Source of the DNA: Branchiostoma floridae
Taxonomy: Eukaryota > Chordata > Leptocardii > Amphioxiformes > Branchiostomatidae
Assembly (NCBI RefSeq): GCF_000003815.2
Contig: NC_049995.1
Location: 3,696,885 to 3,760,884, forward strand
Length of the DNA: 64,000 nt
Direction of reading: 5' to 3'
Shown: piece after piece, positions 33,683 through 54,248 of the stretch
Layout: each line of letters opens with the position of its first letter
How positions within the stretch are numbered: position 1 is the stretch's first letter
The notes under the pieces: model-generated
The model's input: only the letters and a program-made list of their open reading frames with translations
Databases searched by the model: none
What the model was told of the DNA's origin: nothing
Translations under genes and position numbers: made by a program

Positions 33683-34992
33683 CTATTCTGTTTCTCTGTT
33701 TTCTGCCTCGATGTCTGCCCTGGCCACCCAATGCAGGAAAGACATCGTCCTGTGGTACAGCATGGCCAGGAACTGGATGACTTGGATCACGCCAAACACG
33801 AACAGGGAGAGGATCCCCAGTGGGTTGTGTCCGGAGATGTGGAGCACCTGAAACAGGATGTGGGAGATCAGGCCACAGCAAGTAAATTTTATGGATGACT
33901 GCAGCGTAGGCATAAATTTTCGCCTGATTTCACAAGATTATTTTCTCCTTCGGAGATGGTCAACATGACGAGAAAGTACCAAAATGGGAAAATGTGTTAA
34001 TGATTATAAAAGCGTCATGATCTTAATACGTTTGTTCACTGTTCAGAGCTATGGGCTCAAGCAATTTTACGTACTAAAAAGAAGCTTAAATCTTTAGTAT
34101 GACCAATGGCTAGATGGTCACTAGCCTTTGTTGTATATTGCGCTGCAACCAAGTCATACCTCAGATCTGGCTAAGGCGACGATGACGACCAGCCACAGGA
34201 CGTTGACGGCAGCCAGAACCTTGATGGCGGAGTCCCGAAGTTCTCCCAGCTCTACTTTCAGCGTGTCGGCATTAATATTGTTGCTGTTGAAGTTGTCAGT
34301 GTCCTGGTCTGGTCTAAGGCAGCTTCAGAAAAAAAAACAAGGGCAAAGAAATAGAATAGTCTGTGTTTACACAATCTCTCGCTGGCTGGGGTTAATGACC
34401 CCCACCTCCAAGGGCGGTAACTCTCGGGCTGAGCGCAAGAAGCGCGGTTTAAGTCAGGCTAACAAATGGAACAGCGATGTAATATATAAGCGTTCCATGG
34501 GTCATATTCTAGACAGATATCCGAAGTCTAGACCTAGTCTCGAGCTCTTTTGGAAAGGTCGAAGGAGACTCAGTAGGTTTGTCTACCGGGTTGGACATAT
34601 TCGATTTAACGTTCAATGTGTCATTTATTTCATTCAACTGCTTAGTTCTTTAAGTGTTATTCAGAACGAAATGTTATTAGATCATCAACAGCAGTAAAAT
34701 CAGCCAATCAGATACATTTTCTATTATGATGAGTAAAAGAAAAATTAAAACAAAATAGCGTTGAATTGTAAGTATACATTAGCAAATTAACATTTACTAC
34801 CCTGAAGAAAAATCGGACTTATCATGTGAACACAAGACACTAGTTGAGACCTAGAGGGGATTTGTCCTGCTCACCCATTTGCCAGCCGTTCCCACATGCG
34901 GTGTTGTTTCTTCAAAAGTGGCTCAGCTTCCGACATGTCTTGTGCTGGTTTCTCCTTCATCAGTTTCTCTATCTTCTCCTGTAGTTTTTCCT
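33683..34992 (-). other. CHS exons 28-30: coiled coil and final two helices
   Basis: Exon 28 (34992-34875) gives a charged helix with heptad-like spacing ([14 protein letters not shown]). Exon 29 (34313-34160) gives [27 protein letters not shown] and exon 30 (33847-33683) gives [24 protein letters not shown] then SFLHWVA, matching the family's LRNK...NALWV helix and the closing IQFIAMLxHRxxTxxHxLA helix. The TAG at 33683-33685 ends the protein 20 residues after that helix. An in-frame open stretch continues upstream of the exon 30 acceptor (to 33913), so intron retention would be open for a short distance. Confidence 0.85.
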
Positions 34993-37507
34993 CTGTAAGG
35001 AATATCAGAAAGGTACTTTGTTTGTTTGACCTGTACATGGTTTTACGTATAAAACTACAATGCGTCGATCGACATTCACTCACTAGAGTAATATATATAT
35101 ATATATATATATGGATAGAAGATTCGGTTCATGAAAAGAAATGCATTTATTCAGAAGTGTCGCACCATAGAAAACATAAGTCATCTTACAGGTAGGGTAA
35201 CGGAGAAGCAGAACACAACTGCACCTAAAACGTAAAATGATATACCTACAAAATTGAAAAGCACAAAACAATCAGGCTCGCTCCCTGGGAGAGTCGCCAA
35301 AAAGTTATCAATTATTACGGGCACAATTCAATGCAACGTTACCGTCACTAGGTTCTCTCATGTAGGCGATGGATTCCTTCAGGCGCTTAATGTGACCTGC
35401 AAAAATTGGTGGAAACAAGATATAAGCCACAACAGATACACAGTTAATCCACCAAAACCATCCTCCTACGCAGGGACATCCAACAGCCAAACCGCCTGTC
35501 TGGATGTACCCCGCTTTTTCAACCGTCACTCTTAGTTTCTGTGGACGTCCCTCCCAAACCAACTGTCAGCCAATCAGAGAATAGGCCTTTCTGTTTTCAA
35601 AAGGAGTCTCGCATGTATAAGGGTAACTTCATTAATATTTATAAGCGGGGCGGTCAGGAACTAAGGGTGACGGTTGAAAGAGCAGGGTACATCCCGACAG
35701 GCGGTTTGGCTGTTGGATGTCCCTGCATAGGAGGATGACCAAAACACGAAAAAGGGAGACTAACGGTAAACGGTATACCCACCTTTCTTGCGTATTCCTA
35801 TGTTCTCGAAAAGCTGATCTAAGTTACAAGATTTAAGTCGAGCCAGATCTTCTTTTTCTTTATAGCCTGCATTCAGAAATGCTGTCAGGTAGTCGTCTTC
35901 ACAGTGAATAAGCCTTATCCTGGTGAGCCAGTCCTCTGTGTCGTCCTGTAAATAAGAACTTCATTAAGCCCCGTTTACAAATCAAAATTTAGCTCGGCCG
36001 AGGTGTCAGCGAGCTCTAAATTACGAGGAGGCGTGAACCTGATGCCTACGAACAAATGGCAGAGTTTCTTCGTCGGCATCAGGGTCATACCTCCTCGTAA
36101 TTTAGAGCTCGCTGACAACTCGGCCGAGCTAAAATCTTGATTTGTAAACGGGGCTTTATGACACAGCTTATGCTCTTGTAGAATGCACTTTTACGGTCAT
36201 GCTTTCCTTTTAGATATTTAAATGCGGGATCATCGTATGTAAAGATTCATCTTTCTCGAAGCGCCACCCTAGGCGTATTCTTAGGGAGAGTTGTGAGAGG
36301 AGCCGACGGCAATTTCCGTATTGAATACTAAAAATTTAGTTACTACAGAATATAAACGAACGACGTTTTTTGGGTGTATTAGTGTATATTGCTCACTTTC
36401 CATGATGTTTCTTCGCACAGTTTGTTAGGGATTAAATTAATACGATATTATCGTAAATTACCATCGTAATCAAAAGTACGCTTATGTACGCTTATTAGTC
36501 CACCTGAAAGTTACGAAACGCTCGGATATGGTACCGACCATTTTGAGACATGACGAGGACCGTTTACGAGATGGAAAGGATGAGGTAGCTATCGAGGTAT
36601 ATCAAAGCAAACAGAAACAAAGAACTTCAGGAATTATGTCCGATTAGAATATGAAATCTGCTCTTAGTCTTTAAACTAAGAAATCATTCAACGATCGTCT
36701 CACAGGTATGCGACTGCGGAAGGTGTTTGGTGGCAACCTCTTGATATGTTCCAGGATTTGGTCCCTGTGTAGATCATCTCCAATTTCTATGTCTCCCAGT
36801 TCCTGGATGAAGAGGAAGAAACAAGAAATGATACAGCAAATGTTGCTATAAGTCGAGCACGTAATACCAGGCTACTCGAGAAATTCTCTACCTTATTTAG
36901 CCGGGATTGGTTTGATCCACTCACACTGGGAGGGACCGACTATTTTGGATACGTATGGCGGGTTCTTTTACGTGCCTGGGGTATGGCTCTTCCCGAACAC
37001 GGGACCTCCTTTTAACGTCCTATCCAAGGGACGGCCCCAACCTGAAGATAGGTAGTCATTTTTTTCACCTGAGTGAAGTGAGGAAAGTCGGGTAAAGTGC
37101 GTTTCCCAAGGGCACAAGATTTGTGACATGGTAGGTTTTGAACCCAGGCCCATAGATTACAATCATTACTATCATTATCGAATTATCTACAGGAAGATAC
37201 AACTCCCACGGTTGGACCAAAAGCTCTCGTAGCTTACAAGTATATCAGGATTTGTAAAGGAAAATGTTTGGATTTTGTTGAATATAACATTGTCTTTCCT
37301 TTGAACTAAAGATGTATTCAAAAAGCGACACACCTTGAAAGTCATTCCAACAATGTAGCTGGTATCATCGTATCCATTCTTGATGAAATTCCATTGATAA
37401 CTCCCCTGAAATATTAACAGGTATTTATTTATTTCATTTAACGAATATGGTACTAATCCCTTTCTCATCTATCTCATCTATCCCCCCCCCTCTCTCTCTC
37501 TCTCTAA

Positions 37508-37552
<45 letters not shown>

Positions 37553-40500
37553 ACGCACACACACACACACACACACGCACACAAACACGCACACACACAG
37601 GCACACACACACACACACACACACACAGGCACACACACACACACAGGCACACACACACACACACACACACACAGGCACACACACACACACATACTCGCTC
37701 ACTCACTCGGTGGCTTTGTTCGAGAGTTATAGCAAAGGGAGCAAAGGACCTGGCATTATGATACCATATACACCCCGGGGCGGGTCATTAACCCTTAATT
37801 ATCCGACGGAAATATGGTAGCAGGACATTGCATATATTCTGCCATATTGTGCAACACAACAAAACTTTGATTGTTCTCTCATTTCATGTAATACATGTAA
37901 ACGATATAAAGTGCTATTTGCATATGTTGAACAAAGCTACTGTTAATTATGCTTTTTCAAATCACTCCACCTTCTTTATATTCCACAACAGCCTTACCGT
38001 CAGATGAGTGTTCCCGTGGAACACTTTGTTCAGCCAAAGCCGCACCTCTAGATTTTCCCCCGGGTCCACCATCAATGAAGGCCTCGCTCCGACTCGAGGA
38101 TTGCCTATACAATCATGAAAACATTAAGACTGTGCATAAAAGTATACGAAACAATACAGATTTTGGAGCAGTATTTATTTTCCAAAAAAGATTCACGTCA
38201 AATTCACTTTGCGTGCCATACTTCAAGTACAAAGATTCAGTGAGGTAGCTGCGTCCAAATATAAATGGCGCCCATTCTAAAAGTTTCGAATCTTTTTTCT
38301 TTTTTCTTTTTTTTTTCTAACTGCTTTCAGACAGACGAGGATAATGGGGCACTGGACTCAAGTTAGTAATTTATATTAAACGTTAACTTTCCATTAGAAG
38401 TGCCACATACAAATTTACAATACTGAAGTCAGGTACCCAGTTTTAAACCTGGGTCATGAGGAAAGTTGTGTAAAGTGCCTTTCCTAAGGGCACAGCGTCA
38501 GCGGCACGGCGGGGATCGAACTCGGGACCTATAGATTCCTAGCCACACACGACGCCACATCTTTTATTCAAAGATTTCGAATCTTTAACATACAAACATT
38601 AGCGAAACCTCTATGACTATACAATTCACCTGTATTACTAGGGTCACTCCCTCCCACTTGGCCATGGCGTCTGTTTTCACCACTGTCATTTGTTGCATCG
38701 GCACCACTTTGGTCAGCAGTCCTTTCCTGTATCGCAGGCATATTCTGTGGGAGAGCTGTGAGAGGAGTCGATTGGAATTTCCGTCTTGAATACTACACAA
38801 CAGTCGACGCCTTTTTACGTGTATTGGCATATTGCACACAGTCCACACCATGATGTTTTTTTTGCGCAGTTTGTTATGAATCATGATTGAGCCATTTGAT
38901 CTTATGTAATTTTGTTTCTTTGAACCTTTGTTTATTCATGAAAGCTTTCTTAAAGCTATATCTTGTTACCATTTAGCTATTACGACATAATCATAAATTT
39001 CTATTTAAAATGTTGCTTTTGTACGCTTTTGCCTCTTGTCAGCCCCCCTAAAACTTACGAAATGCTCGGATATTGTACTGACCAATTTAAGACATGACGA
39101 CGACCGTTTCAAATACCGACAACCGTTTACGAGATGGACAGCCGAGAAGTCCAGGATGGATCAAGATGGCTATCGAGGTATATCAAAGCAAAAACATTAG
39201 TGAAACCTCAAAGACTATACAATTTACCTTCATGATCACCTGCTGTATTACCAGAGTTGCTCCCTCCCGCTTTGCCATCGCGGCTGTTTTCACCATTTGT
39301 TGCCCCGGCACCACTTTGGTCAGCAGCGGCAGCCTGGGCAGTACTTCCCTCTGTCGGAGACACGGTTGCGCCCCTACATTGGCGGTAATTTCAGTGAAAT
39401 AGTATCAAATTTAAAGAATGGGGAAAAACGATATAATCTTTTCATGCTCCTCTCGTATGTAACGTTATGAGCAATACATAGTTATATTTCGAAAGAGCAA
39501 CAAACCCCCAAGGTGGAAAATTTCCCGACAGTTTCTTACCTGACAATATCTCTGATCGCTTCGCCAATTTTATAAAATATGCTCTTGTCTTTCGCCTTGC
39601 TTCCACCAGTAGTTGCTCCCTCTCGAGTCCCTTTGATATAAGTTGTATACAGAATGACACCGGCTACGTTAGTATTACTTCATGACAAACGACAATTTGA
39701 AGAGACTGAAATGAAATTAATTCATGAATATGTTGATTGAATTTTAGGGCTAGTGACCATATGTAAAACAATATCAGTGTCAAAACTGCTTTAATCTGCC
39801 ATTCCCACTTCGTGCTGTACAAGTCCACACACACACATGCGTTTGTAACATCGTTAAGGTCCGATACCATATAGTACCAGTCCACTATTTGACAATGTGA
39901 AATTGTCATCTTCTGAATATAAACATTCTCACCCCAATTATAGAAAAATTGTTGAACATTACTTCCAACACTGTAATAACTATAGGGACTTACCCCTCTA
40001 AATTTTCGGTCAATCTCCGTCGACCTTGTTCACAGAATGACACTTTCTATCTCCAGCAGTGACGTCAGGAAGACACCACTTTTGCAGGAGGGGGGTCATA
40101 AGTACCAGAAAGTCTATGTCGCCCCCCGTCTTAGAGGTGTTGGAAGTAAAGATTAGCAATTTTTCTATACACAGGTAATGTATTCTACCAACACAGATGA
40201 ACTTTCATGCTAAGCTTCTTACCCCAAGACTTGTCGGTGATGTTACACACGCCGTAGATGTTTAGAAAGATGAAAGTTGTGGGGAGGGCGATGAAGTAGA
40301 GAATTCCGTGAAGCAGACATGGAAGTTCACGAAAGTGGAGCAGTCCTGTCACCAGGAACATCCCGATCGTCGCAATGAAGTAAAATGTGTCCATCGCACT
40401 CAAAACTGCACGGAAAGACGTAATGGAAAACAATGCACCAAAACGGCAGCCCAAACAACTAAACCGTCGCAACAAACTACAGCTAGCAAAGCAATAATTT

Positions 40501-41431
40501 GGTTGAAAAAAATTAATAGAAGAGTTTTCATTCACAACAAATATATATATGCAATCAAACCCGACAATTTGGTCCATATATCACCTTCCTTAGGGCAATA
40601 CTGACTGGTTCTATTTCGCACTCCAGCTAGGGGTCACTGCTTACAATGCGGTAACAAACGTTAAGTATTGCAATATGTACAAGATGTGACAGTCAGCAAA
40701 ATGTTATCTGCATTTTGTTTGGTTATCCGCATCCAATATAACGTTATATAGAGCCACGTATGTATATGTGTATGTTTATTTTGGTTGTGAATGAACAAAC
40801 AAAATAAAGAAGATAGGAAGGTGACACTTGACTTAACATTAACCAAATCAGCTTGACATAAGAGGTGTACAGAGTGTTATATTTACTCTCATTCACGCCG
40901 ACCCCTCCAGAGGAGACAGCGCTGTTGCCAGCTGCAGTGAGAGTCCTTATGGTCACCACAATCTTCTCCACCAACGCTACAGCAGTCATGATCATGACGA
41001 TCCCAAACGCGGCGCCCAAGGCCATGGCCCACTGCATGTAAAATGTGGCATAAAAAAGAAGAACCAAATAGAAATTTAAACGTTAAATAAATAAACGTAC
41101 TTACCGTTAAGAAAATTTCTGCAATATTTTTGTCTCTGTGGGCTATCAGCGTAATTTTCATGAACTAGGGTGTGCATGGTATTGGTAGGAACGCCTTAAT
41201 CATCTTGCTTTGAATGACTATCTTCAGATTACTGTCAAAGCATCAGTTATGGTGACTTCTCTCCCGGTCTGTCTGTCTGTCTGTCTGTGTCTCTGTCTCT
41301 GTCTCTGTCTCTGTCTCTGTCTGTGTCTCTGTCTGTGTCTCTGTCTCTGTCTGTGTCTCTGCCTCTGCCTCTGTCTCTGTCTGTGTCTTTGTCTCTGTCT
41401 GTGTCTCTGTCTCTGTATCCGTCTCCGTCAC

Positions 41432-41462
<31 letters not shown>

Positions 41463-44400
41463 AAACCTACCTTCAGCTGAGTCTCCTGCTCGCACTTCAG
41501 ACAGACGTAACCAAACATGAAAGTGAAGATTGACATGATGGCTATGGTCGCCTCTAGAGGGAAACTACCGGACACGTAGAAGTCCAATCCTCCTGTAGAT
41601 GTTGATGAATGGGAGAAGAAGAAAGCAAAAGTTTCATGAGAAATTATCCAGTAAAGTGTAACTTGTGTTGCCTGAAATGTCTCAGATTCATGTGTTAGAG
41701 GAAAATTGACCTGGAAAACCTTGTTACCAAAGCAAAAACAATGCTACTGACACCTACCGGCTGCAATGAGAATTGCAGTAGCTGGTCCAATCACGAAAGA
41801 ACAGAAGAGAAGCGCCTGGTACAGTAAGAACAGGTGGGATACAGAAGGGTTGCTGGCAACCTTACACCACTTCCGAAGCAGCTCGAGCTGAGGATATTAA
41901 GCAACATTTCATGACTAAGAATGCTTCAAGGTGAACAGGCTGCTGAGTACAAAAAAACTCGTCAATATCTTCAAAGTTATGAATCAAAGTTATGAAAATC
42001 TATTATAGTATAGCTGCTGCAACGTTACATGAGGGGTCAATAAGCGTATGTGCTACTAGAAAAAACGAGATAGAATATTACACACAACTGGATCTATTTT
42101 ACACTCATATTTCGTCTGACATCACTTTTCAAGCTTAGCCTCTTACCTGGTTGGCCACGGTAGACGGCCCCCACCGCCTGCGCTGGTTGAAGAACTCTTT
42201 GAAAGATTCAGGCACGAAAGTGCTGTTCTCGGCAATGGAGGTATACACCAACCGGCAGCCGCGCTCAACCTGGAGGGAAGCAAACAGGTAATTTAGAAAT
42301 GCTTTCTTAATTCTTTTGCCTAGCGCTTGTCCATGGCAATAGTATTCATGTCTACATAAAGATCCACAAGTGTCCAATGGTGAAGGTGCCTCTATCGGAA
42401 GATTGACAGGATAGGCACGTTGGCGATTTGACATTTCCATATCTAAAATATGATTATATTTATTGGCTGATCAAAATATTTTTACATTTTAGCAGTTAAT
42501 ACTACACTTTGGCCAAGTGCGAGTGGTCTGAAAACGTGTGACCTTACCATGAGGGTGCAGAGCCAGCGATCTTCTCCCATGTCCTTCATAAGAAACTCCC
42601 TGGCCTTCCCTGCCTTGGTCGCGTAGGTAGAGACACACTTTCTGATGGCACTGCAGCGGTACACACTGAAGCAGCCCGGGCAGCACAGGACGGTTCCAAG
42701 TGTACTGTTGGCGGCCTAGAATACAACACACAAGGGTTTAGTGACAGCACAAACTGAGCTGATCAAATCATAGAAGCAAGTGAGCAAGCAATCAGCCAGC
42801 TAACCAACCAGCCAGCCAACCAACTCCCCAGCCACTCAGCAGCCAACCAGCCAGCCAGCCAACCAGCCAGCTAACCAACCAACCAGCCAGCCAGCCAACC
42901 AACTCCCCAGCCACTCAGCAGCCAACCAGCCAACCAACCAGCCAACCAACCAGCCAGCCAGCCAACCAACCAGCCAGCCAGCCAGCCAGCCAACCAGCCA
43001 GCCAACCAACTCCCCAGCCACTCAGCAGCCAGCCAGCCAGCCAGCCAACCAACTCCCCAGCCAGTCAGCGGCCAACCAGCCAACCAGCCCGCCAGCCAAC
43101 CAGCCAGCCAGTCAACCAACCAACCAACCAGCCAGCCAGCCAGCCAATCAACCAACCAACCAGCCAGCCAGCCAACCAGCCAGCCAACCAACTCCCCAGC
43201 CAACCAACCAACACACCAACCAACCAACCAACCAGCCAGCCAACGAGCCAGCCAACGAACCAACCAACCAACCAACCAACCAACCAACCAACCAACCAAC
43301 CAACCAACCAACCAACCAACCAACCAACTAACCAAACAGGCAAATATAAAGCAAAGAAACAAGCAAACCAACATCACAGCCTGTGCGTTCATTTGTTTTA
43401 CGATAATGAAGGTATACATACCTTTTGAAACCAGTGTCCTACTGCATAGTCGAACAGTTGTAACCAGTACATAGGCCCAGAGCCCAGGCAGTGTGTCCTT
43501 CCGCATACAGCTCCCACATCCGGGTTCCACTGGGCCAGGTCAAGCAGCTTATTGGCTGACTTTGGAGTGAACTTGACGTCCGCATCGGTTGCAAGGATGT
43601 ACGTGTCACGGTCAAGGTCATCACCTAATAAGCATTTAGCGGGACCCTTTACAAAGTACACACACGTCGATGAAGGTTAGACATCCAGACTCGAGTAACT
43701 GGATATGATTTCTGAAACGGTCAGACGTCTCAACTAGCATCCACTAGTTTTCGTCAGTGACACTGAAGCGACCTTGTTACCTCCATGAAAAATGGAAGGA
43801 TAGTTTTTGAGTCTGTGTGTGTGCCTGTGTGTGTGTCTCTGTGTGTGTCTGGGTGTTTGAACTTGAGAACCTCTTGACTACAATGATATTTGGTGTGTGG
43901 GTAGGTGTTAAGAAGACGAAGGTCAAGGTCAATTTTGGGCCCCCTGGTGTGTGACCTTGGTACTGCAGCATAGCTTCAATATTTATAATCTTTTTACTTG
44001 GACAAGCTATGGTCTTGATTTCTTGGTGGCAGATAGCTTTTGATGCAAGGAAGAAGTGGTGTATGTTTGGGCCCCCTAGCAGCTTGCTCTGGAACTGCAG
44101 GAGCGTTTTTGTCAAAATCTTCTTAGGAGCATAATGGAACATAGGAATGATGGATTTCCATGATATTTGGTATGCAGGTACCTGTGGCAGTGACGTACAT
44201 AAAGAAGTGCAAATTATGCAAATATGGACTTGAGGAAAATCTATATTTACAGTGTTTCCAATATAGGACTCAAATACATGTTACATAATGTGTAGTTTGT
44301 GGCAGGCGGAAGTTAAGCAGATACTAATTATGCAAGTAAGTCCCTAATTTGCATAATTGATTTGAAAGTGTCCTAATTCTTCTTAGTACGTGTATAAAAT

Positions 44401-47400
44401 GATTTGGCTATCAACACTGTGACGTGTAAGTTAGTGAAAGGTGTACATAAGCAAGCATACATTATGCAAACGTCAAAGTCATTTGCATAATCAGAATATT
44501 TCATAGAGGTATGAGGTCTCCGAACTCTTGTTTGAGAGAGTTTTTATATCCTATATGAATTGAAAAACTCTCTCAAACAAGGTCACTCCGGTGTCACTGA
44601 CAAAAACTAGTGAATGCTAGTTGAAACGTCTGACCGTTTCAAAAATCATATCCAGTTGCTTGAGTAATTGCTTTTTGGCGTACTTTACAAAGTACTATGG
44701 GCTGTAATTTACATAGATCAAACTAATCATTTTAATTTCATAGAGTGGTCTTTCCACGGTGCACAGGCGTTGGTGAAACAATCCATACTTCATTCGTCAG
44801 TTGATTAGACGTCTTAGGTAATCATTACTTGCAACCATATTGTGTCATTGAACGCAAAAGAAAATATAATATCAAAAGTACCTTGCCCAAGTATTTCCAT
44901 TCTCAAAGACGGTGCTTTTGGTGAGATATCGTACTTTCTTTCCCAATCAAGCAGTGTGATGGTCAGTCTGTCCGTTCGGATATGGGGTTCTAGGGTCAAC
45001 GTTGTTTTACTGTGCTGGTGGGGTTCGTCAGGCCACTGGACGACCCTCTCCTATATTTGATATATGTTAGAAAGAATCAGCAACTATCTGTTTAATACAA
45101 AATACAATTGATAGCTTGATAACAATAAGTCTTGTTAGACAACGTATCAACTAGTTTATAATAGATGCTTCACCTATGAGTAACCTACCTGATTAGCAAC
45201 CTTGATCTTGGTCACACGTCTCCCCATGTCCCCAGCTTGTAGTATGATGCCTGTCACTGATGACTTTTCCTTTAAGTCTATGGATATTTTCTGTGGACAT
45301 ATATGAAATGTAACATCATGGCAAAACATGTATGCTGCCAATTGCTAATAAAAGTTGGTATGTCCCGATGTAGATCTATGGCATCTTTGATTCCTTCATC
45401 ATAGTAGCCGTTTGGGATAGTGTTCTTCTCGCCGCAAAAGCGCCACCTACATCGGCTACATATAGCGGCGAGAAGCAGAACTCCAGTTAGAAGCTCTGAG
45501 GAAGATGTCTGACAGACATCGAAACGTCAGCAAGTAAGTCAAATTTTGGTTGTGAAAAAGAATTCTCATATATCCTTCATCATAGTAGTCTTGTGCAATG
45601 AAACCTGATTACGTCGATAAAGGTGAGACATCCAAGTAAAAATATACGCCCAAAAGCAGAAGGCCATCTACATAACGGTACGCCAACCATCACTACATGT
45701 TAAATATAATCATAGATGTACTTTCAGGCTAGACTTGTCTATATTGATCAAAATACTGATGTACCTGTTCAGCGGCAGTGTTGCCATTCCATGGTTTTTC
45801 TGCATCAAGTCGGAGGGAGTTCTCATGACTGCATTTCGGTGTTACCTTGATCTGCTTGTCTTTGATCGCACCACTTTTCATGCCGAGGGGTTTGTTGGAC
45901 GCTACGAATGCCATCAGGTACTGAGTTAGTAGCTTTGACAGCGCAATGCAAAAGTCAATTACATTACCATTTGGACCCGTTTTGAATGGAATGGTGCAAT
46001 TTGTTACTTTCTTCCTTCCTTTAAGTAATGACAAGTACCTTTGAAAAACAACTGGCTTTCCTTAACGGTGGCGCAGCTGTTATCAAAATTGTTGGTGACT
46101 AAATAATTGTATATATCAAAATAGACGCACATGCCCCTCAATTTAGAAATATTCTTAAACAGCATAGTTAAGGCCTTAAGGTTCAATGACCCGCCCTAAG
46201 GTGTATAAGTTGCCATAATTCATGGTAGATTCCTATACCTACCGAATGAACGACAGAGCACATATATATCAGGGCGGGTCATTAAGTCAACAAAATGAAG
46301 AACAAACGTGTATTACCGTCGGCGTGTCCAAGTATCTCCATCCTCAGACAAGGTGGCTGTCGTGGAGTATCGTTCTTCCCTGTCCAGTCCAGCAGTGTGA
46401 TGGTCAATTTGTCGGTCAGAACTTTTGTTTTCAAGAGGCAGGTGACTGTGATGTTGCCATAGACTGTGTCTGGGTGGTCTGCGTGTCCAATTGGTGTTTT
46501 AGGCCGCGTGTTGTTGGTGTCAGACCACGCCAGGGATGTATCAGAAGAGGCCTGGGTTGTCCAAAAAGTCTCGACGTCTATTAGCTAGGTGTGTTATAAA
46601 AAAATGATTCAATTACCTTTTCTGTAAATCGTGTGATATTCCGATATCACTTCGTAAACTGAACGTCATGTTATATTGACAGCATAAGAAACTAAGGGAT
46701 GAGGTCCCTACCTACCTCATTCCCAACCTTGATCTTCTTCACGCGTTCGCCCATGGCTCCAGCTTGCAATATGATGCCAGTCACCCGAGACTCTTTATTC
46801 AACGTTATGTTTAACGTCTGCAGCAGGGAATGACAGAATGAATAGCGAGTTATTTTCCTTGGTGTTTTTCTGCTTGTCTAGGGATGTTGTAGCAGTTTTA
46901 CATTGCGTGTCTACCTATTGGACAGAAGAATGGATGTTGACAGTAATCCACTGTACATCTTACCTGTTCAGTATCAGTGGTGCCCTCCCAAGGCTGTTTT
47001 GCATGCAGGCGGAGACAGTTGTTTTCGTGACACGTGGATTGCGATGAGTCTATAATCTTTCCATCCGCGATAGCACCACTTTCCATACCGAGTGGTTTGT
47101 AGTAGGCTAGAAATAGAAGTCAATAGAGAAGTGTATGTAACCTAGACTGGTAAATACAAGTACAGAAAAATACATTAACTTACACGTAAGCTATTTGCCA
47201 TGCTATAGCAAGCGGTCATAGATTTGTAAGCAGTAGGTAACGCTAGGATATTAGTGGAAATCTGCACAGCTAGCTGAGTAGCAGCTCAATTCACCACTAT
47301 AAACAGCAAGAGAATATACAAGCCCGTCAACTAAGACCTAGGTCTGGAATTCTTTAACATAACATAACATTAGCAAATGTCTTACCCATGTAATTCAGGA

Positions 47401-50400
47401 TGTAGGTCATGTACATGATCTGACTCCAACGTTTCTTGTTTTTCACCTATACAGAAATGCAGAATAATATTTAACATACAATGAGCTGTTTATGTGCATC
47501 CGATCCAATAGCATCTTTAAAGTTGATACACATGTTAAAGATCTGTATCATATTTCAATACGATATGCTGCCATTTTTATGATTATCTACCTGCCATTTC
47601 TGCATTGGTCATTTTCATATCGGTTGCCACTTCTGCCTTAGAGCGTAGGTCTACAAGCAGCTTACTTCTACAAGTAGTTGTCAAGGTGACTATAAAATAT
47701 ATGGGATTGCCAATACATTTATCTTTACACTTATATGTTGATTTCATGACACCTACCAGAAGGTTATCCTTGAGATGGATGTAGAACTTCATGCCCCTGT
47801 TGCTGTCTCCATCAGCTCTCCAGTCGAACTGCAGCTGCAGCCCGTACGGAGTCTGCCACTTGATGCAGTCATCAAGGAGACTGTGAGGGCGGCCATCGGC
47901 TCCTGTCACTGTGTATTTAAACAAGGAAACAGTGGTTTTCTAATTCTGCAGCTGTCAATAGCAAATATCAAAGTGGTATGTTTACAAGGCTGATCATGGC
48001 ATCATTGTCTTGCTCGGGAGAATGATCATACTCAATAGCAATGAACATATTTCTAGGTGAGTTCATCAACTTCGAACTTACACCAATAATTATAAACAAA
48101 ATTAATGTTCAGGGCTTTAAACTTTCCTAACCATAACTTGAGAACGACAATAACCTCACCTTCAGTCATCTCGTGAATGATTGACAGGAGCTGGATAGCG
48201 AAAGGTTGGAGTTCAAGTTGTCTGCAGCCGTCATCAAACAGGATGTGGGACTCGTACTTCCGGCGGTCCTCCTTGCAGGGGCTCGTCGCCATGTTCCGGA
48301 TTGATTTCATCAGCTGTGTCATTTCCTCTTTAGACTGAAAGTAAAAATTATCACTCCAACTTAAGTACTTGTAGGTACGGTACGGTATGTAGGTACGGCA
48401 TAGCAAGCGATGTTAAACTAATATAACCCAAGACAGGTACTGAGGGAAAGACTTGTGAAGAATCTGTAAGAATGATGCCTTTACCTCACGGTACATTGTG
48501 GTGCAAATATAGACGTGTGTATTCTTGACTGTCGTGTCTTTGTCCCTGTGATCTTCGGGGCTGTTAAACTCTGTCTTCTTGTTCAGCAACAGATGTTGGT
48601 TCAGGAACACGGCGTTGTAGCCAGGAACCCAAAACAGCTGCATAGAATTTTCATTTCAGGCACAAAGTCCCATATCATTGCATTATAGATTACGAATAAA
48701 CATACAAACATACAAAGCTGAAAAAGATTAACCCTATCCAGACGGGGGGGGGGGGGCTAAAAGTGCCCGCGCCAACTTTGACGTCGGATAACTGCCGAAC
48801 GACGTGTGCTAGGACTACGAAACTTGGTGACTTTTCCTAAAATATTCTTAGCAACAATTCTGCGAAAAAAATTTTAGTGTATGATATTTCGTGTTGCCAT
48901 GGCAACGGGTTTCTGACAGGCATATTTTACGAAGTTTACTAATTTCAGTTTGAATTATGGGATTTCATAGCTTTATTGCTAAACCAAACTTGTTCATCTA
49001 TATAATTAAGATCCTGTGTAATTTTAAGTTACATTTCTAATTAATTATTCATAATTTATGCTAATTTGATGACGTCATGGGTCAAAATCCAAGATGGCGG
49101 ACAATGCCATTTTTAACGATAAATACATGTTATTTTTACTCAAATTCCGTCAGAATCTTTTATTTTCTTACAAAACACAATCATTTGAACCTTTTTAGTC
49201 CACTTCCATTGGGTTTTGGGGTTATATGTGGAAAAAATCGTATTTTAGAAAATTCAAGCTTGTCGATCCAAGATGGCGGACAAATGACGTCATTTTCTGA
49301 CGTCATATTGGCGTCAGTGTCGTCGTCATTGGCAACAAAAGTTTTGGCAGACTTAGACGCCAATACGATAACCTTAATAGTCATCGTTTTCTTGAATTCC
49401 TTTAAGTATAGCGGAAATTTCATATGTAGACGATTTTACCCAAAAATATGACATTATGACGTCATAATTACGTCATATTACGTCATAACGATACCAAACT
49501 TACAGAATACTGTAAATGCATTTAATTTCGCGGGGATTTAATTTCGCGGTAGCGGCAAAATGGACATTTCGCGGTGGATTTAATTTCGCGGTAGCGCCAT
49601 CCCGCAAAATTCAATGCATTTTCAGCACTGCACTGTAGTCACGAACTGCCGTGTAAAACCCGGCGCCTCTACAAACCGCCAGTCGGAAAACACTTGCTGG
49701 TTACCCGGTAAGGGTCCTATACAGACGGATAGAACAGTTTCCATGCTTTTGACTTGTTCTTGCGTGAGCCACTGTTACTGATCTAATCGTATCTACCCTC
49801 TCAATACGTAATAGTATACAGTAGTACGACCTTTGTATCATGGTGAACATACTGTACAGTACTGTAATACAGTTGGTCGTATGAAAAAATTACATGTGTG
49901 TCTTCAGTCAAGACTTCACCATAGTAAGTATGTCAAACATTTCATTATACAGTGACAAAGACAGTAGTAGTATGTACATGGAGCGGAAAAGGGGCACCTT
50001 AGGCGGCGCCAGCAGACGAAATATTCGCGGTGGATTTAATTTCGCGGTGAAGCGGCCGCCGCGAAAACCGCGAATATTAATCCACCGCGAATGTTTTTGC
50101 ATTTACAGTATATAAAACTTAACTAGTACATCATCCCCTCCAAATTTGGGGATCGTAACTTAAGCCGTTTTGAAATTAGGAAGGGGGGGTCAAAAGGGCC
50201 CCCCCCCCCCCCCCCCGGTCCCAGGTATCCCCCAAAAGCCCGGTCTGGATAGGTTTTAAAGTACAACATAGTGAAATAAAATACAGTGGTGGTTAAATCT
50301 GTGAAGATTGCCTGAAAATAACTCTAACTCTAAAATCAAGTTATTGTCAAAGTTATTTCACTTGCTTTAGTGTCACTTATTAAGATTTCTAGGAATTTTG

Positions 50401-51435
50401 CTCAACGTTTGATCCATATACTAAAACAAATTTTACTACAGAGACCCAGTGTCTTACCTTTGCCTCTGGTTCCATGACTTCTACGGGACTCAAGCTGATG
50501 GTCACTACCATCACCAACTCTGTCAGCAGCATCGCTATCATAGCGACCCATGTCCCCACCTGGGCATCTCCGGCAGTCTCACACAGGTTTAAACCCGGAA
50601 TGGTCAGCGATAGGAACTCGCAGAAAGGAGGGACGTGCACCGCAAGTACAAAACAGAGAGACGAGACCACAATGGATAGTATAAAGGCGAGTTGTAGCTT
50701 GCTCTTGAGGGCGACCACTACGAGCAACAGCACGCCAGTCGCACAGCAGATGTTGGTCAGGAACGCGAGGAAATAGCTCCAGTTTCTGTCGATCCGCCAC
50801 AACGGTTGTGCTGCCCACTGCCACATAAGGCTAGGATCTTCAACTGTTCCGTCAAAATATACAATGGCGTAGATTATTGGGAATGTCAAGAGGAATTTCA
50901 CAAGGTTGGAGATTATTCCCATCTTCCATCGCGCGCTAGTCTTAAAGTCGTTATCGTCACACGCTATTTCTTCAAAAGGTTGCACTTCGTCCCTTCCAGC
51001 TTGAGATCTCTGTGATTTCTTTAAAGTCATCTTCTTGAAAAGCTTGATATCGGGAGTCCACGCCAATGTCAAGGGCAGTAGGGTGACGAGAAATGTGGCC
51101 GACGAATGAAGAGAATACCCTATCAGACCAACGGTACACGCGACCAACCCCACTGCAAAGGCTACTATTAACCATCCATTTCTTTTGTGAATTATTTCAT
51201 GTTTACTTGGGCAGCAGCGATTTGTGAGCTGTTGGCCGAACTGCACCAGTAGGGGGAACAGGTGCACGGCATTCATGGCCATGACGTTAGCGATCTGAGA
51301 CGATGTTGCCGATGGAAGAACGACCAAGATGAAGAAGCCGACACCGAACACTTCAAAGATACTCATTGCGATTCCCTGCAAATTCCAGATTGGCAAAAGA
51401 CATTACAGGATATTTGATTTTTTCTTATCAGTCAG

Positions 51436-51476
<41 letters not shown>

Positions 51477-54248
51477 TGGGAACAGGTTACATGTAATACA
51501 TTAGCGCAAAAGCGAATTGTAGTCTGACAGTACATGACATTGCTAGCTCTATACTCAATAGAAACCAGGTGAATTCAACAAAGACTTGACGTAGTTAACA
51601 TGGTTCCTATTCACAGAGGTCTTTTAAAACTCAAGCACAAAGAAATGTGTTTGTATTGAACAAACGGCAGACCATTCAAAACATTATTAGTATTTGAAAA
51701 GTAATCATTCAACACGGTACAAAGTACCCAAAGCTGGCAGAGTAGAATGAAAGGGTTAAAAAGAGTTCGAGCTTGACAAACTTTGGGAAGGTAGAGCAAT
51801 GATGTCATGTGCCATGGCAACATCTTTTCACAGTTTAAACGAGTGCCTTTATATTTACCTACGATGTTCAGTACACAGAAGTATTTGTTCCGTCCAAAGT
51901 CAATAACCATGTGATACTCATGCACATGCCAAAAATAAGCTAGCTAGGTCAAGATGATAATTTGGTCAAGGCAGTAAAAACACCACACGATAGCTGGACA
52001 GACAATGTACAATCGACTCTATTACACAATGAGTATATAAGATAAATACATATAGAATTCTCTCAAAACCCAAGCAGGTAAGCACACCTGTATGTGACCA
52101 CAATTGTAATTCTCAAATTGTTTGTGTTTGTTCATTAGTTGTCTTAATTCTGTGTCTTTGGGTTCATTTATTTTAGATAGCCTCAAAATATTTCAGGTAG
52201 ACATAGCAAACGTATGAATAGATGTCTGTATTGCAGAACATGGCGCAAAAGTTGGACGTTTTCTCTAGAAAAAATATGACTCCTTTTTTAAACACATTTC
52301 ATTAAAAGTGTTCATCTAAGGTCGAATACAAGGCCGCACAATTCTAGGCAAGCACTACTCCTCCTACTTAGAGGCCTGCCAACAACTCAACCTCCCGACA
52401 CTTGAGGCTAGACGGACCCTGTTATGTAGAAAGTTCGGACTCAGACTGTTAAACTCTCCCCTCTACCGTGACTGGCTTCCACCGTCCCGTGGCGAGATCA
52501 GCGGCCGTCTCACCAGAACTTGTAATAATCTGAACTCTGTTCTCACTAGAACTGCCCGGTACCATAACAGCAGCATTCCTTTCCTTGTCAGACTGCTAAA
52601 TTCATCCTAGTACTGATGCTAAAGCACATCTGAATTCCGAACAGACCTGTTTGCTGCTCTTCACCCACTGCATATATACTTTAGTGCTACATGATGGAAA
52701 ATCACGATTAATTGAATGTACAATTATTATATTAGTTTTTAATCGCGTAATTCATTTATAAATATTTCAATCCTTGCTTCTTATCTTAATGTGCTAGGAA
52801 TTTTATCGTATATAATGTATGGACTCATAACTGTGCTGAATGTAATGTCATTACCTCAATTCAGCCGCAAGGCTGCGATCCGTATGACATGCTTGCCAAA
52901 TAAACCATTATATATATACGTATATGTCTCTGGGCAAAAAGTACACGGAAAATAAATATTTCCAAAAGAACTGACTGAACACCGGCCGACTCATTCCAGT
53001 GCTACCGTGCACAGCCGAATGTTTCCCAAGTTTCAAAGCAATTTGGCTGGCGCAGCCGAACACCAGCTACCACTGCCAACCTAATACACCCGAACCATTC
53101 CCAACCCTGGTCGGGGAAAGGTCGGTAGGCCATGTTCAGCTTTGTGTAGGCTGTTTTAGCATGTCGCCAAATTTAGTAAAAAACGTTACCATTTTAGTAG
53201 GACGGTCGTAGTATTTACATTAGTCACACATATGCCATAAATTGGCCGTTTTTGTGGCGCTTTACAGTTGTTCCTGGATTTATAAGGAACAAGACTGGAT
53301 TGTTTGCTGCTATTTGTATCACACTTTGAGTAACAAAACGTTTCACCATAACGACTTAACATATGGTACTATTGTTCAATGCTTTATACGTTATCTCTTA
53401 ACCTTACATAAGAAAGGCCCTAGGAACATCCTCCGGTACCTAAACGATGTAGCCACAAGCTGCATATCATTTTCAATTAAAATTTACTATGTCTACTGTG
53501 GTAACACCTTTAAAATTTGTTATGTCTTCCTATATATATATACATGACCAATGTGTTGCAAAAAGCATAAGTTGCCATGTATCTTCACAACCTTCGCTGT
53601 CAGTAGTTATATTGTTAGGTACCAAACAAAATTATGAGAGTTTATCTTAACTATCAAAAAAAAGAAACATAATCATTTACTCACTGTTGCCGCCGCAGGT
53701 TTTGTCGGCCATGGAACCCGGCTGTTACAGGCCCCCTTCCAAAAACTCCACAGGAAAACACCGGCGTAAGGGATCATCATGACCATTGACAGTGTCGTTA
53801 TGGTCGCGATGCGGACACAGTCTGTGTCTTCTGGATCCACAGCGGTCCCGTTTTCTGTCATGCGGCAAAACGTATCGTCTGACGAGCATCTTACCAGGTT
53901 ACAAGTAGCGTAGCCGGTCGTGGTTTGGTTTGCGGTGGCGCGAAGGGGATAAACTAGGACCAGAAGAGACAACTTCGTGGAAAATATACCTAACGTTATT
54001 GCCAAGAACAGCACGAGTGCAAGTATTATCTTGGTGACCCTCGACGACCAAATTTTACAACAAGACTCGTCATTATCTTCCTCAGAGCTGTCTTCATCGC
54101 GCTCGTAGACTGCCAGTGGTGGTTCGTCTTCGGTTTGGTCGTTTTGTCCATCTTGGTTTCCCGCTGAATTTTCTTCGGTCGGTGGATTTGCCATTTCGTG
54201 ACCAGCGAGGTTCCACTGGTCCATTTCAATATTTTCATCATTTTCCAT
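33683..54248 (-). CDS. CHS: Chitin synthase with two discoidin-like modules and a SAM domain (30 exons)
   Basis: GT2-family membrane enzyme that polymerises UDP-GlcNAc into chitin and extrudes it across the plasma membrane. Minus-strand exons: 54248-53685, 51375-50458, 48637-48485, 48334-48160, 47908-47757, 47446-47386, 47106-46964, 46817-46716, 46551-46317, 45901-45765, 45290-45189, 45050-44882, 43624-43422, 42715-42548, 42269-42147, 41887-41758, 41592-41471, 41031-40887, 40405-40223, 39630-39540, 39373-39228, 38755-38630, 38104-37998, 37405-37334, 36802-36704, 35945-35783, 35396-35343, 34992-34875, 34313-34160, 33847-33683. All are GT-AG and in phase; 5,280 nt, 1,759 codons plus TAG. Order: acidic tail (1-62), N-terminal helices (to ~494), first part of the GT2 region (495-674), two F5/8C-like modules (675-834, 835-970), GT2 core with TDAD 983-986, GEDRW 1085-1089 and QRRRW 1123-1127, helices with SWGTRE, linker, unknown module, SAM (~1543-1614), coiled coil, two last helices. 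The exon 9 and exon 20 acceptors were chosen by phase and homology and are the least certain. ATG has A at -3 and G at +4. Confidence 0.93.
34314..34874. other. CHS intron 28, includes an open frame of no clear meaning
   Basis: A plus-strand open frame (34128-34697, 189 codons) overlaps exon 29 and this intron. The intronic part is GC-richer than its surroundings and basic in translation ([11 protein letters not shown]). No family is recognised and no splice support is seen; it could be a fragment of a mobile element. Confidence 0.25.
35343..35945 (-). other. CHS exons 26-27: SAM domain
   Basis: Exons 35945-35783 and 35396-35343 encode about residues 1543-1614: [58 protein letters not shown]. 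The pattern W-L-x3-L ... F-x3-G-Y-x3-E-D-L-x2-L ... L-x6-G-I-x3-G-H-x3-L-x2-I is the five-helix sterile alpha motif. SAM domains usually homo- or hetero-oligomerise; here the domain would face the cytosol and could cluster synthase complexes (inference). Confidence 0.85.
35452..35743. mobile_element. Inverted-repeat element in CHS intron 26
   Basis: Two arms of about 85 bp, roughly 35452-35540 and 35655-35743, pair through gcagggacatccaacagcc, aaaccgcctgtc, ggatgtacc and ttcaaccgtcac. The loop is about 110 bp. Confidence 0.8.
35965..36158. mobile_element. Long hairpin element in CHS intron 25
   Basis: Arms of about 80 bp pair along the whole length: taaagccccgtttacaaatc, tagctcggccgag, gtcagcgagctctaaattac and gaggaggt/c, with a loop of about 30 bases around 36055. 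The transcribed strand could fold as a near-perfect stem. Confidence 0.85.
36268..36612. pseudogene. Decayed copy of CHS exon 22 5' edge and upstream intron
   Basis: Matches 38733-39190 in order: gtattct-agggagag, tgtgagaggag, ggaatttccgt, ttgaatact, atgatgttt, cgcacagtttgtta, gctcggata, gacatgacga, accgtttacgagatgga and gctatcgaggtatatcaaagc. Only the first few codons of exon 22 remain; the rest of the exon is missing. Confidence 0.75.
37068..37160. repeat. Dispersed repeat shared with 38435-38545
   Basis: Both copies contain gaggaaagt-g-gtaaagtgc, tttcc-aagggcaca, ggt(t/a)-gaac-c-gg and ccatagatt or cctatagatt. The layout (tRNA-like box sequence near gttttgaacccagg) suggests a SINE-like family, unproven. 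Copies are in CHS introns 24 and 22. Confidence 0.55.
37500..37692. repeat. (CA)n microsatellite in CHS intron 23
   Basis: About 190 bp of CA repeat with periodic CAGG interruptions, next to a CT tract at 37483-37505. It starts about 95 bp upstream (on the transcribed strand) of exon 24. Confidence 0.95.
38630..39373 (-). other. CHS exons 21-22: duplicated low-complexity linker exons
   Basis: Exons 39373-39228 and 38755-38630 both encode a Gly/Ser/Asn/Asp/Ala-rich hydrophilic linker and share ADQSGA(G/D)ATN, GEN(S/R)R and GGS(N/D) blocks. Flanking intron sequence is also shared (gactatacaatt next to each donor), so the exon was duplicated together with intron DNA. Phases are 2 in, 1 out for exon 21 and 1 in, 1 out for exon 22. 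Confidence 0.75.
39540..41887 (-). other. CHS exons 16-20: C-terminal helices and SWGTRE motif
   Basis: Exons 41887-41758, 41592-41471, 41031-40887, 40405-40223 and 39630-39540. They encode a run of hydrophobic helices ([83 protein letters not shown]) and end with SW-GTRE split across the exon 19/20 junction. This motif at the end of the helix block is shared by metazoan chitin synthases and confirms the choice of the internal acceptor for exon 20. Confidence 0.85.
41267..41464. repeat. (CTGTCT)n purine/pyrimidine tract next to CHS exon 17
   Basis: About 200 bp of tctgtc/tctctg units. On the transcribed strand it is an AGACAG purine tract beginning within 7 bases of the exon 17 donor. Confidence 0.95.
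42147..43624 (-). other. CHS exons 13-15: catalytic core of GT2 domain
   Basis: Residues 971-1135. Exon 13 (43624-43422) holds [11 protein letters not shown] with the metal/UDP-binding aspartates, then [14 protein letters not shown] and [10 protein letters not shown]. Exon 14 (42715-42548) holds [10 protein letters not shown] and [10 protein letters not shown], with the presumed catalytic base aspartate. Exon 15 (42269-42147) holds [11 protein letters not shown], the acceptor/product-channel signature of processive GT2 enzymes. All key residues are present, so the enzyme looks active. Family usage often has P where GRTHCLG has C. Confidence 0.93.
42777..43340. repeat. CCAA/CCAG tetranucleotide minisatellite in CHS intron 13
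   Basis: About 560 bp of ccag and ccaa units with a higher-order repeat marked by aactccccagccactcagcag, seen at about 42821, 42901, 43008 and, diverged, 43049 and 43189. It gives an open frame of Trp-Leu-Val-Gly/Ala-Gly repeats on the minus strand that is not part of the spliced gene. Confidence 0.95.
43664..44697. mobile_element. 1.03-kb inverted-repeat element in CHS intron 12
   Basis: Ends of about 100 bp are inverted copies: ctggatatgatttctgaaac, ggtcagacgt, caactagcat, cactagttt and gtcagtgacac at 43700-43770, with complements at 44586-44680. The middle has microsatellite-like gtgtgt and the ctccatgaaaaatgg motif. Just inside the right end lies a perfect 19-bp hairpin (cttgtttgagagagttttt, 44528-44582). 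Confidence 0.75.
44882..45901 (-). other. CHS exons 10-12: second discoidin (F5/8C)-like module
   Basis: Exons 45901-45765, 45290-45189 and 45050-44882 (137, 102 and 169 nt) have the same three-exon layout and phases as the first module; the middle exons are both exactly 102 nt. Matching blocks: [53 protein letters not shown]. The two copies are clearly tandem duplicates that have diverged, more in the third exon, where this copy is 66 nt shorter. Terminal cysteines are missing here too (N before KPLGM, Q after ILG). Confidence 0.8.
45392..45588. mobile_element. 165-bp insertion with 16-bp target duplication, CHS intron 10
   Basis: The 16-mer tccttcatcatagtag flanks the insert exactly (45392-45407 and 45573-45588). 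The insert contains gaggaagatgtctgacagac and gaaacgtcag. A perfect duplication suggests a recent retroposition-like event. Confidence 0.8.
46186..46282. mobile_element. 97-bp MITE-like element, ATGACCCGCCCT ends, CHS intron 9
   Basis: Perfect 12-bp inverted ends; the end motif gggcgggtcatta recurs alone at 37780. The right end lies 34 bases from the exon 9 donor. Confidence 0.7.
46317..47106 (-). other. CHS exons 7-9: first discoidin (F5/8C)-like module
   Basis: Exons 47106-46964, 46817-46716 and 46551-46317 (143, 102 and 235 nt; outer phases 1 and 1, inner phases 0). The module opens with [15 protein letters not shown], the hallmark start of F5/8 type C domains (PLGMExGxIxDxxI), continues with [20 protein letters not shown] (family: VTGVxTQG...VxxYKV), and closes with [11 protein letters not shown] and LRMEILG. 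The cysteines that flank the canonical domain are absent: tyrosine precedes KPLGM and histidine follows ILG. The acceptor of exon 9 (cccag, GCC) was chosen because it keeps phase. Confidence 0.8.
47386..48637 (-). other. CHS exons 3-6: first part of the glycosyltransferase region
   Basis: Four exons (48637-48485, 48334-48160, 47908-47757, 47446-47386) encode residues 495-674: [13 protein letters not shown], then [10 protein letters not shown] (the family's ATMWHE block), [35 protein letters not shown] and KRWSQIMYM. These are the standard blocks leading into the UDP-sugar site in metazoan chitin synthases. Exon 6 ends in phase 1 at NYM, exactly where the inserted discoidin modules begin. Confidence 0.88.
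48731..50254. mobile_element. 1.5-kb element with CCCTATCCAGAC ends, CHS intron 2
   Basis: Ends accctatccagacgggg and cggtctggataggtt are inverted; poly-G (48741) and poly-C (50200) runs sit inside each end. Interior carries several tgacgtca palindromes and two aagatggcggacaa motifs. A second element (49508-50110) is nested in it. Confidence 0.75.
49508..50110. mobile_element. MITE-like element, TACTGTAAATGCA family, copy 3 (expanded)
   Basis: tactgtaaatgcatttaatt and tgcatttacagta ends with the family's cgcgg blocks just inside; the middle is about 400 bp longer than in the other copies. It is inserted in the 48731-50254 element, so it is younger. Confidence 0.75.
51431..51476. repeat. (ATCA)n microsatellite in CHS intron 1
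   Basis: Eleven or so tandem atca units about 55 bp upstream (on the transcribed strand) of the exon 2 acceptor. Confidence 0.9.
52347..52610 (+). pseudogene. LINE reverse-transcriptase ORF, C-terminal remnant
   Basis: A plus-strand frame without a start codon reads for 87 residues to [63 protein letters not shown]. This is the typical end of ORF2 of non-LTR retrotransposons in invertebrate chordates (leucine/arginine-rich, RxLLCRKF and IPxLVRLLN). Sequence to about 52925 ends in an AT-rich repeat as expected of a LINE 3' tail. It lies in CHS intron 1, opposite strand. Family level is not determined. Confidence 0.7.

What the first reader, a model, noticed from the sequence alone, without database searches (positions are those of the whole stretch)
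44882..47106. Two discoidin-like modules inserted inside the catalytic region of a chitin synthase
Seen: two tandem three-exon cassettes, both phase 1-1, lie between the WSQIMYM block (exon 6) and the TDAD motif (exon 13). Known: in metazoan chitin synthases these blocks are separated by only a short stretch, and the whole region is cytosolic. Inference: a module normally found outside the cell was shuffled into a cytosolic enzyme core and then duplicated, adding about 295 residues near the UDP-sugar site. It might bind membrane lipid, nascent glycan or a partner and gate synthesis. Mosaic amphioxus chitin synthases are known to me in general; this internal position I have not seen described.
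Basis: partly seen in the sequence, partly recalled or inferred. Interest (0 to 1): 0.88.

Follow-up and report, generated by a model that had tools for sequence, protein, structure and literature searches.

The report
Discoidin modules inside amphioxus chitin synthase
In amphioxus, the chitin-making enzyme carries one or two copies of a module normally found outside cells, spliced into a surface loop of its internal catalytic core, where it probably serves as a docking or assembly handle rather than taking part in the chemistry.

The parts
53685..54248 (-). E1, N-terminal region with first membrane helices (residues 1-188)
   Evidence: gene model; letter for letter in P0002 (C3Y4T2)
50458..51375 (-). 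E2, N-terminal membrane region
48485..48637 (-). E3, start of the GT2 core, CTTMYRE motif
48160..48334 (-). E4, GT2 core, FDDG
47757..47908 (-). E5, GT2 core
47386..47446 (-). E6, [20 protein letters not shown] helix, ends in phase 1
46964..47106 (-). E7, module 1 exon a ([13 protein letters not shown]...)
46716..46817 (-). E8, module 1 exon b (...[20 protein letters not shown]...)
46317..46584 (-). E9, module 1 exon c, ends [10 protein letters not shown]; about 30 residues longer than the counterparts compared; absent from the deposited model P0002
45765..45901 (-). E10, module 2 exon a ([13 protein letters not shown]...)
45189..45290 (-). E11, module 2 exon b
44882..45050 (-). E12, module 2 exon c, ends LRMEILGQG; absent from the deposited model P0002
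43422..43624 (-). E13, [18 protein letters not shown] strand with the DxD motif
42548..42715 (-). E14, GEDRWLCT catalytic motif
42147..42269 (-). E15, FNQRRRW motif
40223..41887 (-). E16-E19, C-terminal membrane helices, start of SWGTRE
39228..39630 (-). E20-E21, rest of SWGTRE and cytosolic tail
33698..37438 (-). downstream exons by similarity to P0003: SAM region and conserved C-terminus (exon borders not refined)

Best explanation
A phase 1-1 F5/8C module entered a length-tolerant loop of the GT-A core of a type I chitin synthase in the amphioxus lineage and was kept through much of the family's expansion. In this gene and its B. belcheri counterpart it was duplicated in place. The module folds on its own. 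Its two ends lie next to each other, so the host loop can close around it and the disulfide that ties the ends in secreted discoidin domains (recalled) could be lost. Shown by sequence and model: insertion, fold (one-module relative; module 1 of the two-module counterpart), loss of the cysteine pair, constraint between the two copies, presence of the catalytic motifs. Inferred: it juts into the cytosol from the face of the catalytic domain away from the membrane and leaves catalysis intact. Inferred with less certainty: it works as a protein-docking or self-assembly handle that gathers or positions synthases, as the plant-conserved region is thought to do for cellulose synthase.
Against: No assay, no RNA evidence. 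Module 1 of the window scores below Pfam's cut-off by itself. Both deposited two-module models drop E12 or its counterpart (P0002, P0005), so a transcript with a truncated second module is possible. The second module in the P0005 model has low confidence (pLDDT 36-55). Modules change faster than the core in all 7 pairs compared (for example 78% against 95% identity, P0007-P0008), which fits a tolerated passenger as well as a binding domain under change. One amphioxus subfamily (6 sequences in the tree) has no insert, so it is not needed for activity in general. 7 of 28 CHS modules keep a Cys within five residues of the C-terminal end, without a partner at the other end.
Confidence: 0.5

Rival explanations
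1. Tolerated passenger: a self-contained domain sits in a permissive loop and is kept folded only so as not to harm the enzyme; it has no ligand.
For: The same loop varies from 18 to 41 residues and also holds unrelated inserts: acidic low-complexity (148 and 168 aa, amphioxus P0115, P0118), lysine-rich (92, mussel P0019), repeats (299, snail P0082). Modules evolve faster than the core in all 7 pairs compared. A no-insert subfamily exists.
Against: A folded domain of about 150 residues is kept in several paralogues and in three named species plus hybrids; dN/dS 0.34 between the two copies; the duplicate in the window kept all three exons.
Confidence: 0.22
2. Lipid sensor: the modules bind phosphatidylserine of the inner leaflet and gate or orient the synthase.
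For: Closest solved relatives are C domains of factors V and VIII and lactadherin; a factor VIII C2 domain is solved with phosphatidylserine (title); the inner leaflet is rich in that lipid (recalled).
Against: In the alignment of the P0007 module the hydrophobic spike loops are not kept: the loop that reads WW or MF in the C2 domains reads YGNDPSHGG, and the LL loop is two residues shorter (the role of these residues is recalled). Topology puts the module on the face remote from the membrane. The window's own modules were not aligned for this.
Confidence: 0.12
3. Sugar or nascent-chitin binding: the module works like a carbohydrate-binding module and couples synthesis to product.
For: Some galactose-binding-like jelly rolls bind sugars (recalled); weak Pfam matches to carbohydrate-binding families (CBM_AftD E 0.001, Agarase_CBM E 0.1).
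Against: Those matches are below cut-off; the nearest sequence relatives found outside the family are animal F5/8C proteins and one unnamed F5/8C protein. The nascent chain leaves through a membrane channel (PMC9556331 passages), away from this loop by topology.
Confidence: 0.06
4. Optional exons: the main transcript skips E7-E12, or one cassette, and the encoded insert is rarely made.
For: Each cassette is phase 1-1, so skipping keeps the frame. Deposited models drop E9 and E12 (P0002) or E12's counterpart (P0005).
Against: All six exons have GT/AG borders and are conserved as coding sequence; most deposited models of the one-module relatives include a whole module.
Confidence: 0.1

Closest known systems
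Amphioxus mosaic chitin synthases (Guerriero 2012, PMC4937987; title seen in reference lists; content recalled, paper not held)
   Same: Same species and gene family; from recall of its abstract, a discoidin and a SAM domain were reported in nine of twelve B. floridae synthases.
   Different: Whether the position inside the GT2 core, the double module, the loss of the cysteine pair and the spread over species were noted there could not be checked.
F5/8C (discoidin) domains of factors V and VIII, lactadherin, neuropilin, retinoschisin, DDR2
   Different: Placed in a cytosolic enzyme core (inferred); the terminal cysteine pair is missing; spike loops of the membrane-binding members are not kept in P0007.
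Plant-conserved region (PCR) of plant cellulose synthases
   Same: Insertion in a GT2 synthase between the first two catalytic aspartates, pointing to the cytosol (PMC8306620 passages).
   Different: No sequence relation claimed or tested; a discoidin jelly roll here; an assembly role is only proposed here.
Muskelin
   Same: Discoidin domain of an intracellular protein that mediates dimerization (PMC9932110 passages; intracellular location from the abstract of PMC1876237 in the listing).
   Different: N-terminal domain of a kelch protein, not an insertion in an enzyme fold.
Metazoan type I chitin synthases of cnidarians, molluscs and brachiopods
   Same: Same core motifs; SAM domains in many of the longer entries of the list.
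   Different: Short loop, 18-41 residues, at the insertion site, apart from the mussel and snail sequences named above.

Membership tests
F5/8C (discoidin, PF00754) | Profile match above the curated cut-off | tested here: met
   Whole protein 38.7 bits against 28.2 with two stretches; module 2 alone 28.3; module 1 alone 20.4, below. Five relatives 33.7-94.3 bits; P0005 32.9, P0010 24.9, below.
F5/8C (discoidin, PF00754) | Discoidin jelly-roll fold | tested here: met
F5/8C (discoidin, PF00754) | Cysteine pair joining the N- and C-terminal ends (usual in secreted members, not required; recalled) | tested here: not met
   Both ends: 0 of 28 CHS modules against 28 of 33 full-length non-CHS modules; by exact position first Cys 0 of 28 and last 1 of 28 against 17 and 19 of 20.
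F5/8C (discoidin, PF00754) | Extracellular location | not testable with these tools
   Location inferred from flanking catalytic motifs; the GT domain of chitin synthases is cytosolic (PMC9556331 and PMC10409773 passages).
Membrane-binding C2-type discoidin (factor V, VIII, lactadherin) | Hydrophobic spike loops | tested here: inconclusive
   Not kept in the P0007 module alignment; window modules not aligned for this.
Metazoan type I chitin synthase | GT2 motifs in order (TMYxE, DDG, RWSQ, DAD, EDRW, QRRRW, SWGT) | tested here: met
   TTMYRE 540, KNKKRWSQ 656, TDAD 994, EDRW 1097, QRRRW 1134, SWG 1338; FDDG read by eye in E4, my pattern for it did not fit.
Metazoan type I chitin synthase | C-terminal SAM domain | tested here: met
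   SAM_2 37.2 bits against 20.5, SAM_1 34.3 against 23, on joined downstream exon pieces.
Plant CesA PCR-type insertion | Insert between first Asp (DDG) and DxD of a GT2 synthase | tested here: met
   Insert lies between FDDG in E4 and TDAD in E13.
Plant CesA PCR-type insertion | Mediates oligomer formation | not testable with these tools
   Needs protein; proposed as next step.

The most novel reading that the evidence does not exclude
Amphioxus turned a secreted matrix-type module into a regulatory insert inside the catalytic fold of a membrane synthase. Both of its ends run straight into substrate-binding elements (the RWSQ helix and the DxD strand), so ligand binding or self-association of one or two jelly rolls could assemble synthases or tune UDP-GlcNAc binding: an animal counterpart, reached independently, of the plant-conserved region of cellulose synthase.
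Probability: 0.3. Interest if true: 0.78.

Novelty: new variant of a known kind. Interest (0 to 1): 0.56.

Why it matters
It is a clear case of a whole folded domain with exon-shuffling phase inside an essential catalytic domain, with related genes that carry none, one or two copies, so the cost and gain of the insertion can be tested directly. It also points to a loop of chitin synthase that tolerates large cargo, and to a possible animal parallel to the assembly inserts of plant cellulose synthase. The missing cysteine pair, most often Tyr and Tyr, offers a readable mark of a secreted-type domain placed in the cytosol.

Tried and rejected
Considered and rejected: (1) reading artefact or chance open frames: rejected by splice sites, profile, conservation and dN/dS. 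(2) Unique event in this gene: rejected, 29 of 119 relatives share the site. (3) Separate origin of the window's two modules from unrelated donors: in the module tree both lie in one starred clade of 8 CHS rows, with the window's module 2 beside P0005's module 2. (4) Several independent insertions in the family: not settled. The core tree needs 2 changes of the F5/8C label; the module tree has CHS modules in 2 changes with weak support, and one clade is not rejected (p-AU 0.43). (5) Relative outside amphioxus with the insert: none among the 120 listed of 981 hits or the 29 rows; 861 hits were not listed. Fold searches list by rank, so an unlisted family is not excluded.

Led nowhere: the genome search on the window's own assembly did not complete, so introns of the no-insert paralogues and other copies could not be read. 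Guerriero 2012 is not held. Literature searches: 'chitin synthase'+'discoidin' (5 papers, listing only, none on this by title), 'chitin synthase'+'F5 8 type C' (0), and (9, 2, 2 and 15 of 17 papers listed). Of these I read passages of PMC3942024, PMC10216261, PMC5122149 and PMC6109156 by term search; none of those passages describes the internal position. A five-term search for the CesA PCR gave 0.

Controls and dropped rows: one search found no pattern match in 4 of 11 control proteins (P0121, P0122, P0125, P0131), and 11 of its 20 control modules come from one protein, P0123. I therefore recounted with profile-defined modules: 33 of 40 non-CHS modules matched the profile end to end, from 10 of 11 proteins, 13 of them from P0123; 28 have Cys at both ends, 2 at the last only, 3 at neither. 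They are still not independent. On the CHS side 28 proteins were named; the window gave two modules, P0052 none, the others one each; P0002, P0017 and P0021 were not put in. An earlier count gave 0 of 30 and 1 of 30. The core tree used 52 of 121 proteins; the module tree used 19 CHS and 40 other modules.

Full report
What is there. The region is part of one gene on the minus strand. I assembled 21 exons (54248 down to 39228), all with GT/AG borders, giving 1418 open codons. Similarity to a relative extends the gene to about 33698, with a SAM region and a conserved C-terminus. E1-E8, E10, E11 and E13 are found letter for letter in the deposited B. floridae protein C3Y4T2 (P0002), so the window is B. 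floridae; E9, E12 and E14-E21 are not in that model.

The insert. E6 ends [20 protein letters not shown] in phase 1. E7-E9 and E10-E12 follow as two cassettes, each starting and ending in phase 1. E13 then gives [18 protein letters not shown]. The insert is 307 residues. The gap between the end of WSQIMYM and TDAD is 326 residues here. In 86 of the 120 proteins scored it is only 18-41. Beyond TDAD the core is rigid in length: TDAD to EDRW is 103 residues in 112 of 121 measurements, and EDRW to QRRRW is 37 in 120 of 121. The insertion loop is thus a tolerant place in an otherwise fixed core.

Are both copies real coding sequence? Four DNA blocks of 46-111 nt are shared by the two cassettes at 73-80% identity, and they run at most 8 nt past an exon border. 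dN/dS between the copies is 0.34 over 136 codon pairs, with synonymous sites near saturation. E12, the exon dropped by the deposited models, aligns to the third exon of a one-module relative at 47% identity, score 119, against at most 21.5 in 500 shuffles. The window's module 2 is closer to P0005's module 2 (76% over 80 residues) than to its own module 1 (52%), so the duplication is probably older than the split of these two species (module tree).

How widespread is it? Of 981 hits the best 120 were listed. Of the 119 with both motifs, 29 carry F5/8C-type sequence at this spot, all from Branchiostoma (B. floridae, B. belcheri, B. lanceolatum and hybrids of B. floridae with B. japonicum or B. 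belcheri). 28 of the 29 bear PF00754 in the precomputed list; P0004 does not. Several are orthologues, or incomplete or flawed models, of one gene. Six listed amphioxus sequences have no insert, and two carry an acidic stretch instead. In a tree of the core (52 rows), amphioxus F5/8C and no-insert genes form one starred group; the F5/8C label needs two changes, and the window pairs with P0005 (support 86). One origin of all CHS modules is neither shown nor rejected (p-AU 0.43). Unrelated inserts occupy the same loop in a mussel and a snail sequence as well; the snail one may be a retained intron.

A mark of the move to the cytosol. In discoidin modules of non-CHS relatives the domain usually starts with Cys three residues before PLGM and ends with Cys after ExxG. 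Of 33 full-length modules of such relatives, 28 have Cys at both ends; of 28 CHS modules, none has; 7 of the 28 keep a Cys near the last position alone. By exact position the first is Cys in 0 of 28 and the last in 1 of 28, and Tyr-Tyr is the commonest pair, 17 of 28; the controls there have both in 17 of 20. 13 of the 33 and 11 of the 20 controls come from one coral protein, and that the control proteins are secreted is inferred from their domain lists. In P0007 the two positions are Tyr191 and Tyr344, and residue 191 is the first aligned to residue 2174 of factor VIII C2. A host loop that holds both ends makes a disulfide unnecessary, and it would be hard to form in the cytosol (inference). 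That the GT domain is cytosolic is stated in PMC9556331 and PMC10409773 (passages read).

Where does it sit in the machine? In PsChs1 the substrate tub is made by TMYNE, DGR and DVGT with a KASKL motif as a wall (passages). In yeast Chs1 the catalytic site lies in the pocket between the GT and transmembrane domains (passages). I equate KNKKRWSQ with the KASKL region and TDAD with DVGT by order (inference). The insert then joins the far end of the helix to the far end of the DxD strand. So it should leave the fold on the side opposite the nucleotide and point into the cytosol, not 'near the UDP-sugar site'. This is topology; no distance was measured.

How it probably works. The nearest precedent in a GT2 synthase is the plant-conserved region of CesA, which lies between the first two catalytic aspartates; modelling cited in that review finds it needed for the catalytic trimer, and other work cited there gives it a role between dimers (PMC8306620 passages; domain labels in a legend of PMC10592267). 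A discoidin domain doing such work inside cells is known from muskelin, whose discoidin domain mediates head-to-tail dimerization (PMC9932110 passages). I therefore favour docking or assembly. The passenger reading is the main rival: the modules evolve faster than the core in all 7 pairs compared, and one subfamily lacks them. Lipid binding is weakened because the spike loops are not kept in P0007. Sugar binding has only weak profile hits.

What is new. From memory, Guerriero 2012 reported discoidin and SAM domains in nine B. floridae chitin synthases; I saw only its title in reference lists, and the paper is not held. My searches found no paper describing the internal position (mostly listings). 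New here, as far as I can tell: the site inside the GT-A core, its spread over amphioxus paralogues, the missing cysteine pair, and the double module. I file it as a new variant of a known kind.

Noticed in passing
P0001, P0003, P0010 (relatives): Some amphioxus chitin synthases also carry an OTU-like cysteine protease domain behind the catalytic part (P0003: 61.7 bits; P0010: 56.1 bits; P0001 by the precomputed Pfam list), an odd partner for a synthase.
   Followed up: no
P0115, P0118, P0019, P0082 (relatives): Unrelated inserts in the same loop: acidic low-complexity in two amphioxus proteins (148 and 168 aa), lysine-rich in a mussel (92), repeats in a snail (299, possibly a retained intron).
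   Followed up: partly
window 42785-43335: Intron between E13 and E14 is largely a minisatellite of AACC / CAACCAACCAGCCAGC units, likely to disturb assembly and gene prediction here.
   Followed up: no
window 41268-41461: TCTGTC array in the intron between E17 and E18.
   Followed up: no
window 47106-44882; P0002, P0005: The deposited models of this gene and its B. belcheri counterpart are incomplete: P0002 skips E9 and E12 and stops after E13, P0005 skips the counterpart of E12.
   Followed up: yes
P0018, P0038 (fish hits): Two fish proteins of over 2100 residues hold repeated chitin synthase motifs, which suggests tandem copies fused by gene prediction (motif positions).
   Followed up: no
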